Under the pieces are notes generated by a model. That model was given only the letters and a program-made list of their open reading frames with translations, was not told the DNA's origin and did no database searches. A program made the translations under genes and the position numbers. Below are positions 1-34,979 of a stretch of DNA of 35,070 nucleotides, one piece after another. The stretch comes from Eubacteriaceae bacterium (lineage in GTDB: Bacteria > Bacillota > Clostridia > Eubacteriales > Anaerofustaceae), in NCBI GenBank assembly GCA_017531485.1, contig JAFXKY010000055.1, forward strand, positions 1 to 35,070, written 5' to 3'. Positions within the stretch are counted from its first letter, which is position 1. Each line of letters starts with the position of its first letter.

Positions 1-213
1 GCGCAGCCACGGGCAACCGATGCTCAGCATCGGTTGCGGCGCGGGCGGGGGTGGGTGGGCGGGGATGTCAAAAAAGGAAAAGTGCGACAGCACTTTTCTA
101 CCTTATTGAAAGCCGCTGAAATCCCATTTCAGCGGAAAAGGACGGAGAGGCACCTATGGAGCAAGGCTTGGAGTTTACGGAGAGCCTTGCGGATATACGG
201 TGCATTGACGTCC
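1..213. repeat. Family A composite repeat, copy 1 (left end cut by window)
   Basis: Same module as at 7786-7961 and 28233-28409. In + orientation it holds an imperfectly closed hairpin (ACCGATGC/GCATCGGT, about 16-36), a G-rich tract with five G runs separated by one base (43-64), an A run, an AAAAGTGC/GCACTTTT hairpin, a CCGCTGAAAT/ATTTCAGCGG hairpin, and a nested structure. The nested structure has outer arms GGACG (140-144) and CGTCC (209-213), middle arms GCACC (150-154) and GGTGC (199-203), and inner arms GCAAGGCT (161-168) and AGCCTTGC (183-190). The inner arms differ from the other two copies on both sides, so pairing is kept. No credible coding. Function unknown; a structured RNA on the minus strand or a mobile, palindrome-rich element are both possible. 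Confidence 0.85.
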
Positions 214-226
214 TCGGGCGGGGATG

Positions 227-260
227 TCAAAAAAGGAAAAGTGCGACAGCACTTTTCTAC
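227..260 (-). terminator. Rho-independent terminator of arcC, derived from family A hairpin
   Basis: On the minus strand, AAAAGTGC, a TGTC loop and GCACTTTT are followed by CC and six T (A run 229-234 on +). It lies directly after the arcC stop codon. About 45 bp around it (217-260) repeat the segment at 58-101 almost exactly, so the terminator unit of the family A repeat is duplicated here and appears to serve arcC. Confidence 0.8.
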
Positions 261-4381: not shown

Positions 4382-4470
4382 TTTGGAATGAGTAGAGGGT
4401 ATACGGAGGAAAGTGTTCCACAGCACTTATGGAAACATCCTTACTTCCCTGCACTTTCCGGTGTATACCC
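4377..4470. repeat. Nested long-range inverted repeat
   Basis: GGGTATAC (4397-4404) pairs with GTATACCC (4463-4470) and, just inside, GGAAAGTG (4408-4415) pairs with CACTTTCC (4452-4459). A competing stem links GGATGTTT (4377-4384) with AAACATCC (4433-4440). These two pairings cross, so this could switch or form a pseudoknot, or simply be a mosaic of inverted repeats. No open frame of note. Confidence 0.6.
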
Positions 4471-4579
4471 GATCCCCCTGCGGCGCGCGCCTGAGTGAAC
4501 GCAGTGGACGAAGGCGCCGCGTCCCCCTACAGGTAAGGGGGATGTCATCGAGCCCGAGGCGAAGATGACAGGGGGATGT
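4471..4579 (+). repeat. Family B repeat, copy 2 with GC-rich 5' module
   Basis: A GCGGCGC...GGCGCCGC module (about 4480-4521) precedes the palindrome CCCCCTAC/GTAAGGGGG (4523-4541), hairpin TCATC/GATGA (4545-4568) and tail CAGGGGGATGT (4569-4579). The same order of modules occurs at 9474-9578 downstream of the recombinase. Confidence 0.75.
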
Positions 4580-4660
4580 CTGAGATGCGGAATGTTGGGG
4601 AGTGGGCGGATGTTCACGCGATCTGCCTTCATAATTATCCGCGAGCTTTGGGCAGTCCCC

Positions 4661-4707
4661 GATCCCCCTGATGACTGCGTCATCTTTCCCCCTTACAAGT
4701 AAGGGGG
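4661..4707 (-). repeat. Family B repeat, copy 3 (inverted)
   Basis: On + the order is reversed: tail GATCCCCCTG (4661-4670), hairpin ATGAC/GTCAT (4671-4683), perfect 9-bp palindrome CCCCCTTAC/GTAAGGGGG (4688-4696 and 4699-4707). With copy 2 it brackets a further stem, GCGGAT/ATCCGC, near 4606-4642. Confidence 0.75.
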
Positions 4708-4717
4708 AAAGATCCAC

Positions 4718-7283: not shown

Positions 7284-7512
7284 AAAAAAGTCCCTGTGTA
7301 TATTCACAGGGACGAAGTAATCCGTGGTTCCACCCAAATTAGCAATTATGCTCACTCATTTTCCTTTAACGCAGGTTACGTCCCGTCCTACTTGATTCAG
7401 CGGGCAGCTCGGAAGTGGTTTTCGCGGTTCTCAAACAGGATATTTTCAGCTTACATATCCCTCTCTGGGAGTGAGGTTATCGTTACTCGTCTTCGTCAAA
7501 GCCTTTTAAACT
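7284..7512 (-). promoter_or_regulatory. T-box riboswitch of thrS
   Basis: Transcribed leader between promoter and thrS. The T-box sequence TGGGTGGAACCACGGA is at 7321-7336 (minus strand). Directly after it comes the terminator hairpin GTCCCTGTG/CACAGGGAC (7290-7298 and 7305-7313) with six T. An AGAGAG-type loop lies near 7466. In the specifier region the minus strand reads GAAAACCACTTCCGAG, giving a probable ACC (Thr) specifier at 7417-7419, which fits the gene it controls. Uncharged tRNA-Thr should stabilise the antiterminator and switch thrS on. Confidence 0.93.
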
Positions 7513-7547: not shown

Positions 7548-7637
7548 TGGTATTTTATGCGTTTTTGATTATAGATGTGTTTCATAGTCAATAATCCCCG
7601 TAAAGCTATCTGCACTCCCGCCCGCCACCCCCGCCGC

Positions 7638-7785
7638 CGGGCCGTGCATGCACGGCCGGCCAAGTGGCTTTGCCACTTGGCCGCGAAAGCATGGCTTTCG
7701 CGCGGCGGCGGCAGCGCCGCGCGGGTCGCTTTGCGACCCGCACCCGAAGGCTTTGCCTTCGGGAACCGATGCGGAGCATCGGTTG
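7638..7785. repeat. Array of seven adjacent hairpins (family A, copy 2, variable part)
   Basis: Back-to-back palindromes with unrelated stems: CCGTGC/GCACGG, GGCCAAGTGGC/GCCACTTGGCC, GCGAAAGC/GCTTTCGC, GCGGCG/CGCCGC, CGGGTCGC/GCGACCCG, CCCGAAGGC/GCCTTCGGG, AACCGATGC/GCATCGGTT. Loops are 2-3 nt, and most stems end in GC at the loop. Open frames across the array are a by-product of GC richness. The array runs straight into the conserved module. Confidence 0.85.
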
Positions 7786-7961
7786 CGGCGCGGGAGGGGG
7801 TGGGTGGGCGGGGATGACAAAAAAAGAAAAGTGCGACAGCACTTTTCTACCTTATTGAAACCCGCTGAAATCTCATTTCAGCGGAAAAGGACGGAGAGGC
7901 ACCTATGGAGCTAAGACAGCAGAGAATCGGAGGTCTTAGCGTAAATACGGTGCATTGACGT
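7786..7961. repeat. Family A composite repeat, copy 2, conserved module
   Basis: G runs of 3, 5, 3, 3 and 4 with single-base loops (7792-7813), A run, AAAAGTGC/GCACTTTT hairpin, CCGCTGAAAT/ATTTCAGCGG hairpin (one loop base differs from copy 1), then nested arms GGACG/CGTCC, GCACC/GGTGC and GCTAAGAC/GTCTTAGC. On the minus strand the AAAAGTGC hairpin is followed by TTTTC and a run of seven T, an intrinsic terminator. It ends 39 bp before the small ORF that leads the recombinase. Confidence 0.88.
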
Positions 7962-8000
7962 CCGCGGGCGGGTGAAATAAAAACGAGGAGGTGTGTTCAG

Positions 8001-8168
8001 ATGAAGGTAATAAGCCACACTCAGCAGGAACTGAATAATATCGTCATTTTAAACGGCGAAGTGTATGAAATAATCTCGGAAGCAGTATCGGAAGACAGTG
8101 AAGAAGATGAAGGCGGGTCTTTATTGCAGGGTGTCGACGGATATGCAGGCGGAAGGCTATTCCATTGA
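8001..8168 (+). CDS. Small ORF leading and overlapping the recombinase
   Basis: Fifty-five codons, starting at ATG 8001 with GAGGAGG 8-10 nt upstream, the best ribosome binding site in this region. The product begins MKVISHTQQELNNIVILNGE and has an acidic stretch (SEDSEEDEGG). It overlaps the recombinase by 71 bp in another frame, so it may couple translation of the recombinase or encode a small accessory protein. I do not recognise the family. The first ~35 codons outside the overlap look protein-like; the last ~20 are constrained by the recombinase frame. Confidence 0.55.
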   Translation: MKVISHTQQELNNIVILNGEVYEIISEAVSEDSEEDEGGSLLQGVDGYAGGRLFH

Positions 8169-9459
8169 TGCCCAGAAAGAACTGCTCGCAAGTTATTGCA
8201 GGATCAAGAATATAGATAAATACGATTATTATATCGACGCAGGTTATTCCGGAAGCAACATGGAACGCCCGGGGCTTGAGAAGCTGAAAGATGATTGTAA
8301 GGAAAAGAAAATAAACGTTGTTATTGTCTATAAGCTCGACAGGCTCTCCCGAAGTCAGAAGGATACCTTATTTCTCATCGAAGAAATATTTATACCAAAT
8401 GGTGTGGATTTTATTTCCATAAGTGAAAATTTTGACACCGCAACGCCGTTCGGCAAAGCCATGATAGGTATTCTTTCCGTCTTTGCCCAGCTCGAAAGGG
8501 AAACTATACGTGAAAGAACGAGAATGGGGATGAAGGAGAGAGTGAAGGCAGGTTATTTCCCCGGCGGCGGAAAGCTTCCGTATGGGTATGATTATGATAA
8601 GATAAAAGGCATCCTCGTTCCGAATGAAAGGGCGGAGGATGTCAGGAAGATGTATGAAATGTATATCGACGGATATTCCACAGGCAGGATCGCGGAGATG
8701 TTCGGAATAAAGTACGATTCCATGATAAAGAACATATTGAAAAGCAAGATAAACTGCGGGATCATTGAATATAACGGCAGTGAATACGACGGACTGCATG
8801 AAGCGATCGTTGACAGGTCCGTGTATGACACAGCCATGAACATCATGCAGGGGAGATCTTCACGGTATGTGAGGGTTTCGGAAAATCTGTTGACGGGGAT
8901 ACTTTATTGCGGTGTCTGCGGGGCAAAGATGCGGTATCAGAAATGGGGAAGTGCAGGAAAAAAGATATGTTGTTATTCACAGCAGTCCGATAAGCCATAC
9001 ATGATAAAAGACAAAAACTGCGACAACAAGAAAAACTTCGCTGATGAGATCGAAAGGCTTGTCATAGGCGAGCTTTTCAAGATGTCCCTTGATCCGGAGA
9101 GGATATCTTCTCAGGAGAGAGATGGTGTGAGTGAGAGTTATGAACGTCTGAAAAAGAGAATTGAGGAAAATGACAAAAAGATATCGAATCTGTTGAATTT
9201 CATTGCCAAAGGCATTGCTGTAGAGGAGACGGAAAGCAAGATCGCGTCGATTTCGGAAGAAAACGGAATTCTTAAAAAGAGGCTCATGGAGAGCGAGAGG
9301 AGAGTGAGTAATTTATCAAGTTTCCGTCAGAAGATCACGGGGCTGAGTGACATCTGGGGAGAGCTTGATGATAAAAAGCGGCGGGCGATAGTATTAAGTC
9401 TTGTGGAGAGGGTGGTGGTAACGTATGAGGACATAGATGTTTATTATACGTTTTCGTGA
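8098..9459 (+). CDS. Large serine recombinase (resolvase/integrase family)
   Basis: Site-specific DNA recombinase that cuts and rejoins through a phosphoserine link. The 453-residue product has the N-terminal resolvase catalytic domain with nucleophile S13 in YCRVSTDMQ, the arginine-rich YKLDRLSRSQKD segment near 80-90 and the FGKAMIGILSVFAQLERETIRERT helix. A Recombinase domain follows (about 155-260), then a zinc ribbon starting at C270xxC273, and a coiled-coil segment (about 330-410). Start could be GTG 8098 or ATG 8107. No excisionase, cargo or clear att repeat is seen, so it may be a stranded remnant of a mobile element. It is bracketed by a family A repeat upstream and a family B repeat downstream. 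Confidence 0.93.
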   Translation: MKKMKAGLYCRVSTDMQAEGYSIDAQKELLASYCRIKNIDKYDYYIDAGYSGSNMERPGLEKLKDDCKEKKINVVIVYKLDRLSRSQKDTLFLIEEIFIPNGVDFISISENFDTATPFGKAMIGILSVFAQLERETIRERTRMGMKERVKAGYFPGGGKLPYGYDYDKIKGILVPNERAEDVRKMYEMYIDGYSTGRIAEMFGIKYDSMIKNILKSKINCGIIEYNGSEYDGLHEAIVDRSVYDTAMNIMQGRSSRYVRVSENLLTGILYCGVCGAKMRYQKWGSAGKKICCYSQQSDKPYMIKDKNCDNKKNFADEIERLVIGELFKMSLDPERISSQERDGVSESYERLKKRIEENDKKISNLLNFIAKGIAVEETESKIASISEENGILKKRLMESERRVSNLSSFRQKITGLSDIWGELDDKKRRAIVLSLVERVVVTYEDIDVYYTFS

Positions 9460-9473
9460 GGATAGCACTCATG

Positions 9474-9624
9474 CGGCGCGAGATCCGAACGAGCGAAGCG
9501 AGTGAGGAGTTGCGAGGCGCCGCCGCGGTCCCTCTTACTTGTAAGGGGGAAAGAGGGCGAAGCCCTCAGGGGGATCGGTGAGAACGCAGAGAGGGTGCGT
9601 ATCAGTGTGTTCTGCATTTTCTCA
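9474..9624 (+). repeat. Family B repeat, copy 4, with flanking stems
   Basis: GC-rich module GCGGCGC...GGCGCCGC (about 9475-9524), palindrome CCCTCTTAC/GTAAGGGGG (9530-9549, one G-T pair), hairpin GAGGGC/GCCCTC (9553-9567), tail AGGGGGATCGG (9568-9578), then a long stem TGAGAACGCAGA (9579-9590) against TCTGCATTTTCTCA (9611-9624). No coding potential. It occupies the gap between the recombinase and the next gene. Confidence 0.78.
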
Positions 9625-28075: not shown

Positions 28076-28232
28076 TGGCGCCGCCGTGCTCAGCGCTCTG
28101 CGCTGAGCCGCCTGAGGCTTCGCCTCAGGCAAAATCCGCGGATGCGGATTTTACGGCGGCGGCAGCGCCGCGCGTCTGTGCGAAGCACAGACGCAGTCCG
28201 TGGCGAAGCCACGGACGAGCGTTGCTGACAAC
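28076..28232. repeat. Hairpin array of family A, copy 3
   Basis: Consecutive palindromes: GCTCAGCGC/GCGCTGAGC, GCCTGAGGC/GCCTCAGGC, AAAATCCGC/GCGGATTTT, GCGGCG/CGCCGC, GCGTCTGTGC/GCACAGACGC, GTCCGTGGC/GCCACGGAC, GAGCGTTG/CAACGCTC. Only the GCGGCG stem is shared with copy 2. Nothing here encodes protein. Confidence 0.85.
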
Positions 28233-28409
28233 GCTCGCGGCGCGGGGGTGGGTGGGCGGGGATGGAAAAAAAAGAAAAGAGCGAAGCACTTTTCTACCTT
28301 ATTGGCTCCGCTGAAATCCCATTTCAGCGGAAAAGGACGGAGAGGCACCTATGGAGCTAAGACAGCAGAGAATCGGAGGTCTTAGCGGAAATATGGTGCG
28401 TTGACGTCC
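28233..28409. repeat. Family A composite repeat, copy 3, conserved module
   Basis: G runs of 5, 3, 3 and 4 with single-base loops (28244-28261), an A run, an imperfect AAAAGAGC/GCACTTTT hairpin (one A-A and shifted base, so weaker than in other copies), CCGCTGAAAT/ATTTCAGCGG, and nested arms GGACG/CGTCC, GCACC/GGTGC and GCTAAGAC/GTCTTAGC. It lies between the divergent hydrolase unit and the hypothetical/crp unit. Confidence 0.87.
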
Positions 28410-34184: not shown

Positions 34185-34328
34185 TAGAATTCGATGTAAA
34201 ATATGAAATCATTTTGTGTTTCAGTATCTACTTGTTTTTCCATAGAACCGGAAGCATTTACTTTTATTCCCATGTTTTTAACTGCAGCATCTATACCGGC
34301 GGCAGCATTGCCGATGATGTTCTTGAAT
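34184..34328 (-). pseudogene. 3' remnant of an unrecognised minus-strand gene
   Basis: On the minus strand an open frame ends at the TAA (34186-34184). Over about 47 codons it reads as plausible protein (NAAAGIDAAVKNMGIKV...SGSMEKQVDTETQNDFIF). Upstream of 34328 the frame runs into promoter DNA repeated at 34931, so the true start is lost. Homologue unknown. Suggests the region 34329 onward was inserted or rearranged. Confidence 0.5.
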
Positions 34329-34377
34329 GGCAAACTATTTTGCACATATTGAAAATCCCACATACTTATGGTACAAT
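34329..34377 (+). promoter_or_regulatory. Promoter module 1 with operator-like palindrome
   Basis: GCAAA/TTTGC inverted repeat (34330-34343), TTGAAA (34349-34354), 17-bp spacer, TACAAT (34372-34377). A 36-bp stretch (34329-34364) is repeated nearly identically at 34931-34966. Confidence 0.82.
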
Positions 34378-34443
34378 GATACTGGAAAAGTATCTGTGTA
34401 AACAGTTAGATAAACCATGAATTTGACAAAGAAGTGTGATTGT

Positions 34444-34923: not shown

Positions 34924-34930
34924 GACTTTT

Positions 34931-34979
34931 GGCAAACTATTTTGCACATATTGAAAATCCCACATATTAATGGTATAAT
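34931..34979 (+). promoter_or_regulatory. Promoter module 2 with operator-like palindrome
   Basis: Same 36-bp segment as at 34329-34364, then TTGAAA, 17-bp spacer, TATAAT (34974-34979), a better -10 than module 1. Confidence 0.85.

What the first reader, a model, noticed from the sequence alone, without database searches (positions are those of the whole stretch)
7638..7961. Composite repeat with G-quadruplex tract, hairpin array and covarying stems, three copies in 28 kb
Three copies (1-213, 7638-7961, 28076-28409) share an ordered module: G runs with single-base loops, A run, AAAAGTGC hairpin, CCGCTGAAAT hairpin and a nested stem. The nested stem's inner arms are GCAAGGCT/AGCCTTGC in copy 1 and GCTAAGAC/GTCTTAGC in copies 2 and 3: several bases change on both sides and pairing stays. 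This is direct evidence for selection on a folded nucleic acid. I do not recognise the family.
Basis: seen in the sequence. Interest (0 to 1): 0.85.

Follow-up and report, generated by a model that had tools for sequence, protein, structure and literature searches.

The report
Dispersed cloverleaf-and-rod folding DNA repeats
The repeat is real: it joins two independently dispersed, non-coding elements that keep an elaborate fold (a double cloverleaf, and a hairpin plus rod) while their letters change, found in one bacterial genus only, which makes it a good system for asking how folded repeats spread and are kept.

Summary
The "hairpin array" is a twin cloverleaf: two head-to-head four-way junctions, each a closing stem with three near-perfect arms, then a G-tract and a terminator-like hairpin. 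The "nested stem" part is a separate ~105-nt module, M: a hairpin plus a rod with two purine-rich internal loops. The genome holds 45 M hits (36 full length) and about 40 cloverleaf hits. The sister species has about 20 diverged M hits and single cloverleaves with largely different arms. No other genome searched has M (0 of 339 in the class).

M covaries far above shuffles (0/500). Its wobbles are strand-biased (G·U 50 cells, A·C 4), so the + strand is the folded one. Cloverleaf arms also covary, but almost without wobbles and with GNA/TNC triloops that mirror each other in the two lobes, as DNA-level palindromes kept by template switching would.

Covariation alone is therefore not direct proof of selection, but for M strand bias plus conserved loops make it likely. 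No Rfam, phage or plasmid match. Best reading: two non-autonomous mobile structured repeats of REP/BIME/MITE kind, perhaps mobilised as folded single-stranded DNA. The enzyme is unproven; transcription is untested.

The parts
7616..7632 (+). C-rich tract, left arm of a possible outer stem with the G-tract
   Evidence: Predicted pairing 7616-7632 with 7796-7813; absent in copy 3, so not a constant part.
7633..7709 (.). Left cloverleaf of copy 2: closing stem 7633-7639/7703-7709; arms 7640-7657, 7658-7682, 7683-7701
   Evidence: Fold and comparison with about 20 left lobes; triloops of left lobes are TNC, not GNA (22 vs 1).
7714..7791 (.). Right cloverleaf of copy 2: closing stem 7714-7720/7785-7791; arms 7721-7741, 7743-7763, 7764-7784
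   Evidence: DNA fold z -9.7; 23 lobes: 98.6% of cells paired, 17 pairs and 103 cells changed on both sides, 0/500 shuffles.
7792..7813 (+). G-tract of copy 2 (G-quadruplex motif)
   Evidence: Only three G4 motif sites in the window, at the three copies.
7825..7848 (-). Terminator-like hairpin with T-run, reading leftward into the element; foot 5'-AATAAGGTAG
   Evidence: Fold; survey of 26 such hairpins.
7856..7963 (+). M module of copy 2: hairpin 7862-7884, rod 7889-7963 with GAG/TGA and GGA-type internal loops
   Evidence: R1 118.5 bits; covariation; RNA z -7.2.
12..57 (+). Copy 1 (truncated by contig start): end of right cloverleaf and G-tract
   Evidence: Repeat family D1; sequence.
57..101 (+). 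Left 45-bp direct repeat of copy 1: G-tract, A-run, terminator-like hairpin 76-99
   Evidence: Identical to 216-260.
107..213 (+). M module of copy 1: hairpin 113-135, inner stem 161-169/182-190
   Evidence: R1 116.3 bits; fold.
216..260 (+). Right 45-bp direct repeat of copy 1 (hairpin 235-258), also in terminator position for arcC on the - strand
   Evidence: arcC.
28079..28161 (.). Left cloverleaf of copy 3: closing stem 28079-28087/28153-28161; arms 28088-28108, 28110-28130, 28131-28152
   Evidence: Fold; arms differ from copy 2 in sequence, not in plan.
28165..28243 (.). Right cloverleaf of copy 3: closing stem 28165-28171/28237-28243; arms 28172-28194, 28196-28216, 28217-28236
   Evidence: Fold; R3 80 bits.
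28244..28262 (+). G-tract of copy 3
   Evidence: G4 motif.
28273..28295 (-). Terminator-like hairpin of copy 3
   Evidence: Fold.
28302..28409 (+). M module of copy 3
   Evidence: R1 114.6 bits.

Best explanation
The feature is a composite of two non-autonomous, structure-constrained mobile repeats restricted to one genus. Element 1 is a twin cloverleaf: two inverted three-armed four-way junctions flanked by inward-pointing, terminator-like hairpins; it often sits just behind genes or doubles as their terminator. Element 2 (M) is a ~105-nt module whose + strand folds as a hairpin plus a rod with two purine-rich internal loops. Shown here: dispersal in many intergenic copies, absence from the orthologous site in the sister species, fold conservation, strand bias for M, near absence of wobbles in the cloverleaf, genus restriction in the genomes held. 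Inferred: both spread by an enzyme acting in trans that recognises the folded single strand, as Y1 HUH transposases do for REPs; cloverleaf palindromes are kept perfect mainly at DNA level by template switching, while M is kept by selection on the folded + strand (single-stranded DNA during mobility, or a transcript).
For: 45 M hits in G000 and 21 diverged ones in G001, none in 65 other genomes of the order or in 339 of the class. M copies examined lie outside ORFs of 90 aa or more; the upstream gene is co-directional in 19 of 27. The orthologous thrS-recombinase interval in G001 is 118 bp with no element. M covariation. Wobble asymmetry. Consensus fold of + strand -48.7 versus -31.8 for - strand. 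Cloverleaf covariation with 4 wobble cells among 787. GNA/TNC triloops mirror-imaged between lobes, left 1:22 and right 26:7, Fisher p 1.4e-8 on related copies. G001 cloverleaves share the plan with largely different arms. Direct repeats abut M: 45 bp identical in copy 1, 47 bp with one mismatch in L010, about 18 bp in L026/L028, 80 bp at lower identity in G001. One Y1 transposase, weakly RAYT-like, lies in G000 beside another cloverleaf repeat.
Against: No transposase gene was found flanked by M or by the twin cloverleaf, and R1 finds no M near the Y1 genes. The Y1 protein scores far below the RAYT cut-off (32.5 versus 80 bits). The REP GT[AG]G foot is found at only 6 of 26 terminator hairpins by the script (8 if AG inside the stem counts) and was not seen at M. 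Direct repeats of 18-80 bp are unusual as target duplications, and flanks of unrelated copies also resemble each other (mismatched pairs up to score 176). Absence in G001 could be loss. Copies are related, so shuffle tests overstate independence.
Confidence: 0.5

Rival explanations
1. M is a functional RNA (an sRNA or 3'-UTR element) kept for the host, that happens to be repeated; the folded RNA is the selected object.
For: + strand bias of wobbles and conserved internal loops and hairpin top; more copies downstream of co-directional genes (19 of 27).
Against: No conserved neighbour gene seen; copy number and positions differ between sister species; 5 copies lie on a contig with prophage genes; 6 of 25 copies with both neighbours lie antisense to both; no expression data.
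Confidence: 0.25
2. No selection: the matching arm changes come from intrastrand template switching at palindromes and from block exchange between copies.
For: Template switching makes compensatory changes and loop inversions in one step (PMC8794818; PMC8604942). Cloverleaf arms are near-perfect, almost wobble-free and turn over; 7 of 33 right-lobe GNA/TNC triloops are in the opposite orientation; M hairpin types reassort against rod types.
Against: For M: 50 G·U versus 4 A·C cells, hairpin loop never inverted in 31 copies, internal-loop bases nearly invariant, tandem G·A loop kept in the sister species. The process does not by itself explain constant junction geometry.
Confidence: 0.15
3. The composite is a transcription insulator: a double terminator with G-tract, recruited behind genes.
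For: Inward terminator-like hairpins with T-runs at array ends; arrays directly behind gene terminators.
Against: Copies 2 and 3 lie between divergent genes; terminator hairpins need neither cloverleaves nor M.
Confidence: 0.07
4. M is the guide-type RNA of an unknown RNA-guided mobile element (as the bridge RNA of IS110 or the RNA of TnpB/IscB elements).
For: Hairpin plus rod with internal loops; strand-specific; mobile-like dispersal.
Against: The internal loops are conserved, whereas guide loops should vary (general knowledge); Rfam finds nothing at E up to 1 in M. IS110, TnpB and IscB genes were not searched for.
Confidence: 0.03

Closest known systems
REP / BIME / REPIN palindromic repeats with RAYT (TnpA-REP) transposases
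   Same: Intergenic, multicopy, hairpin-based, mosaic, inverted doublets; some terminal hairpins here carry a GTAG/GTGG foot; a weak RAYT-like gene is present.
   Different: Much larger units (78-nt cloverleaf lobes, ~105-nt M module); M lacks the GT[AG]G foot; no transposase found flanked by these repeats.
MITEs and other small non-autonomous bacterial repeats
   Same: No conserved ORF, intergenic, dispersed, similar inverted ends on some twin cloverleaves, direct repeats beside some M copies.
   Different: No autonomous partner identified; direct repeats long and variable; elaborate conserved branched fold.
Rfam structured RNAs (sbcD and radC RNAs gave weak hits in the array)
   Same: Several hairpins in a row.
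   Different: Hits are far below gathering score (23.4 vs 40 and 15.5 vs 40), lie in the cloverleaf, and M gives none.
Double-hairpin / GC-cluster elements of organelle genomes (general knowledge, plus PMC2800124 abstract)
   Same: Dispersed hairpin-forming repeats in intergenic DNA.
   Different: Not branched junctions with a strand-specific rod; different hosts; no homology tested.

Membership tests
REP/REPIN | GT[AG]G tetranucleotide 0-2 nt 5' of a hairpin (PMC6006769) | tested here: inconclusive
   Terminator hairpins: 6 of 26 by script (8 counting AG in the stem), background 2%, but copies are related. M hairpin: none seen in the 5' flanks printed.
REP/REPIN | Dedicated transposase gene flanked by the repeats (REPtron) | tested here: not met
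   The Y1 gene in G000 has no M within about 1.5 kb and is beside a different cloverleaf-type repeat; protein below RAYT cut-off. Contig breaks leave room for a missed gene.
REP/REPIN | Inverted doublet of hairpin units | tested here: met
   Twin cloverleaf with mirror-image GNA/TNC loops.
REP/REPIN | Unit of 20-40 bp | tested here: not met
   Lobes of about 78 nt, M of about 105 nt.
MITE | Terminal inverted repeats | tested here: inconclusive
   Inward hairpins with similar feet at both ends of some arrays; M has none evident.
MITE | Target-site duplication | tested here: inconclusive
   Direct repeats of 18-80 bp abut M at four or five loci; no precise empty site recovered.
MITE | Relative with a transposase gene | tested here: inconclusive
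   Only the Y1 family was searched.
Rfam family | Score above a gathering threshold | tested here: not met
   Only the thrS T-box in the window; nothing for M at E up to 1.
Group II intron (class C, inserts behind terminators) | Catalytic intron RNA | tested here: not met
   No intron model reaches threshold. Reverse transcriptase genes were not searched.

The most novel reading that the evidence does not exclude
M and the cloverleaves are substrates of a not yet described mobilisation system that reads branched nucleic acid shape rather than sequence: a near-perfect four-way junction with free arm sequence as the transposing unit, with M as a second, strand-specific unit of the same system.
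Probability: 0.12. Interest if true: 0.85.

Novelty: new variant of a known kind. Interest (0 to 1): 0.55.

Why it matters
Two kinds of covariation lie side by side in one element: strand-asymmetric with wobbles (M) and nearly wobble-free (cloverleaf). That makes the question 'does covariation prove selection, or can template switching alone produce it?' testable in one genome. If mobile, the cloverleaves would be mobile elements recognised by shape while arm sequence turns over freely. The M family is absent from Rfam and merits a covariance model.

Tried and rejected
Plasmid and phage collections (blastn distant): no match. A core pattern of M in viral contigs: none. The same pattern in 84,980 GTDB genomes gave 3 exact hits; read and tested with the M model they are chance (no model hit at those places). 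Serine recombinase at 8098-9459 as the element's own enzyme: rejected, since it sits at the same place in G001 without the element. Y1 transposase as proven partner: not supported. Pairing of the C-tract with the G-tract as a constant outer stem was dropped because copy 3 lacks the C-tract. A kink-turn reading of the first internal loop was considered and dropped because the bulge pattern is not constant.

Full report
What was checked. The three copies are at the stated coordinates. Their G-tracts are the only G-quadruplex motifs in the window.

Two elements, not one. BLAST of the 324-bp feature against its own genome gave 49 matches covering different parts of the query. A search with the 3' half alone gave 41, many in other surroundings. 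Reading these loci shows two units. One is the GC-rich array with C- and G-tracts. The other, called M here, runs from the CCGCTGAAAT hairpin to TGACG[CT]CC. M occurs next to the array or inside another repeat class built on CCCCCTTA..TAAGGGGG.

The array is a twin cloverleaf. Copy 2 folds with a left lobe (7633-7709) and a right lobe (7714-7791), each a closing stem plus three arms of about 7-11 bp with almost no unpaired junction base. The right lobes extracted elsewhere and about 20 left lobes fold the same way. On 23 right lobes 98.6% of cells pair, 17 pairs and 103 cells change on both sides, none of 500 shuffles reach this, and slid controls pair at 29-39%. There are only 4 wobble cells among 787. 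The loops are mostly GNA or its complement TNC: 69 of 101 triloops against 12.5% for random triplets. They are mirror-imaged between lobes: left TNC 22, GNA 1; right GNA 26, TNC 7 (copies are related, so the p-value is nominal). GNA triloops closed by C-G make unusually stable DNA mini-hairpins (general knowledge; 'GCGAAGC' papers listed). In the sister species G001 the same plan appears as single cloverleaves with a closing stem CCCGCCGCAGGC/GCCTGCGGCGGG and largely different arms, one of them 17 bp long. A third class in G000, ATCCCCCT..AGGGGGAT, is also a three-armed cloverleaf in most copies.

M. Seventeen copies aligned with a hand-drawn fold: 97.7% of cells paired, 14 pairs with both-sided change, 0/500 shuffles. 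With 31 distinct copies G·U cells number 50 and A·C 4, in 12 and 3 pair columns. A caveat is that the fold was predicted with G·U allowed; the hand-drawn fold leans the same way. The consensus energy is lower on the + strand, -48.7 against -31.8. The rod carries two internal loops: GAG opposite TGA, which can form tandem G·A pairs, and GGA opposite GGA. The model from G000 (R1) finds 11 copies in G001. There the stems differ but the AAAT-NNN-ATTT hairpin top and the GAG/YGA loop persist. On the joint alignment, which was fitted to the R1 model, 13 pairs change on both sides, 0/500 shuffles. The joint model R2 finds 45 and 21 hits in the two species, none in 65 other genomes of the order and none in 339 of the class. 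Those searches used strict filters, so distant forms could be missed.

Is it mobile? The interval between thrS with its T-box leader and the serine recombinase gene in G001 is 118 bp without the element, against about 500 bp here. M copies are intergenic; five lie on contig C50, which carries prophage genes. M is flanked by direct repeats at several loci: 45 bp identical in copy 1, 47 bp in L010, about 18 bp in L026 and L028, 80 bp in G001 L079. In copy 1 and L010 the repeats match within a locus and differ between loci, which suggests duplication at the target, but flanks of different copies are also alike, so this is not decisive. No enzyme is tied to either element. A Y1 (IS200-like) protein in G000 resembles REP transposases weakly, below the curated cut-off, and has no M nearby.

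Does covariation prove selection? Template switching between palindrome arms creates compensatory changes and inverted loops in one event (PMC8794818, read; PMC8604942 abstract). The cloverleaf pattern (near-perfect arms, hardly any wobble, some inverted loops, turnover of arms) fits that process. M does not fit it as well: wobbles are one-sided, its hairpin loop is never inverted among 31 copies, and loop bases are nearly invariant.

Known families. Rfam gave only the T-box at gathering score; sub-threshold hits fall in the array and none in M. Paper searches found REP/BIME/REPIN literature but no described cloverleaf repeat of this kind; the library is open-access only, so absence there is weak evidence. 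Membership in REP is not claimed: unit size and the transposase association fail, and the tag is inconclusive.

Verdict. A genuine, genus-restricted pair of structured, probably mobile repeats; a new variant of the REP/BIME/MITE kind. The mobilising enzyme and any RNA function are inferred and untested.

Noticed in passing
window 7305-7508 (-): T-box leader upstream of thrS, above the Rfam gathering score.
   Followed up: yes
window 4470-4715 and 9529-9581: Another cloverleaf-type repeat class (ATCCCCCT .. AGGGGGAT) with interchangeable hairpins such as GATGACGCAGTCATC and GAGGGCGAAGCCCTC.
   Followed up: partly
L045 (G000:C50): Phage terminase and portal genes with an M copy close by; five M copies on this contig.
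   Followed up: partly
L102 1090-1995 (-) (G000:C73): Y1 (IS200-like) transposase, weakly RAYT-like, overlapping an mcsA-like ORF and next to a cloverleaf-type repeat.
   Followed up: partly
window 8098-9459 (+): Large serine recombinase (resolvase, recombinase and zinc-ribbon domains) conserved in place in the sister species.
   Followed up: partly
window 34328-34377 and 34930-34979: 50-bp direct repeat (94%) upstream of small ORFs, with a related 29-bp repeat at 34420 and 34593.
   Followed up: no
many contig ends of G000 (e.g. C41, C58, C20, C8, C55): Assembly breaks at the twin cloverleaf, so copy counts are uncertain and probably lower bounds.
   Followed up: partly
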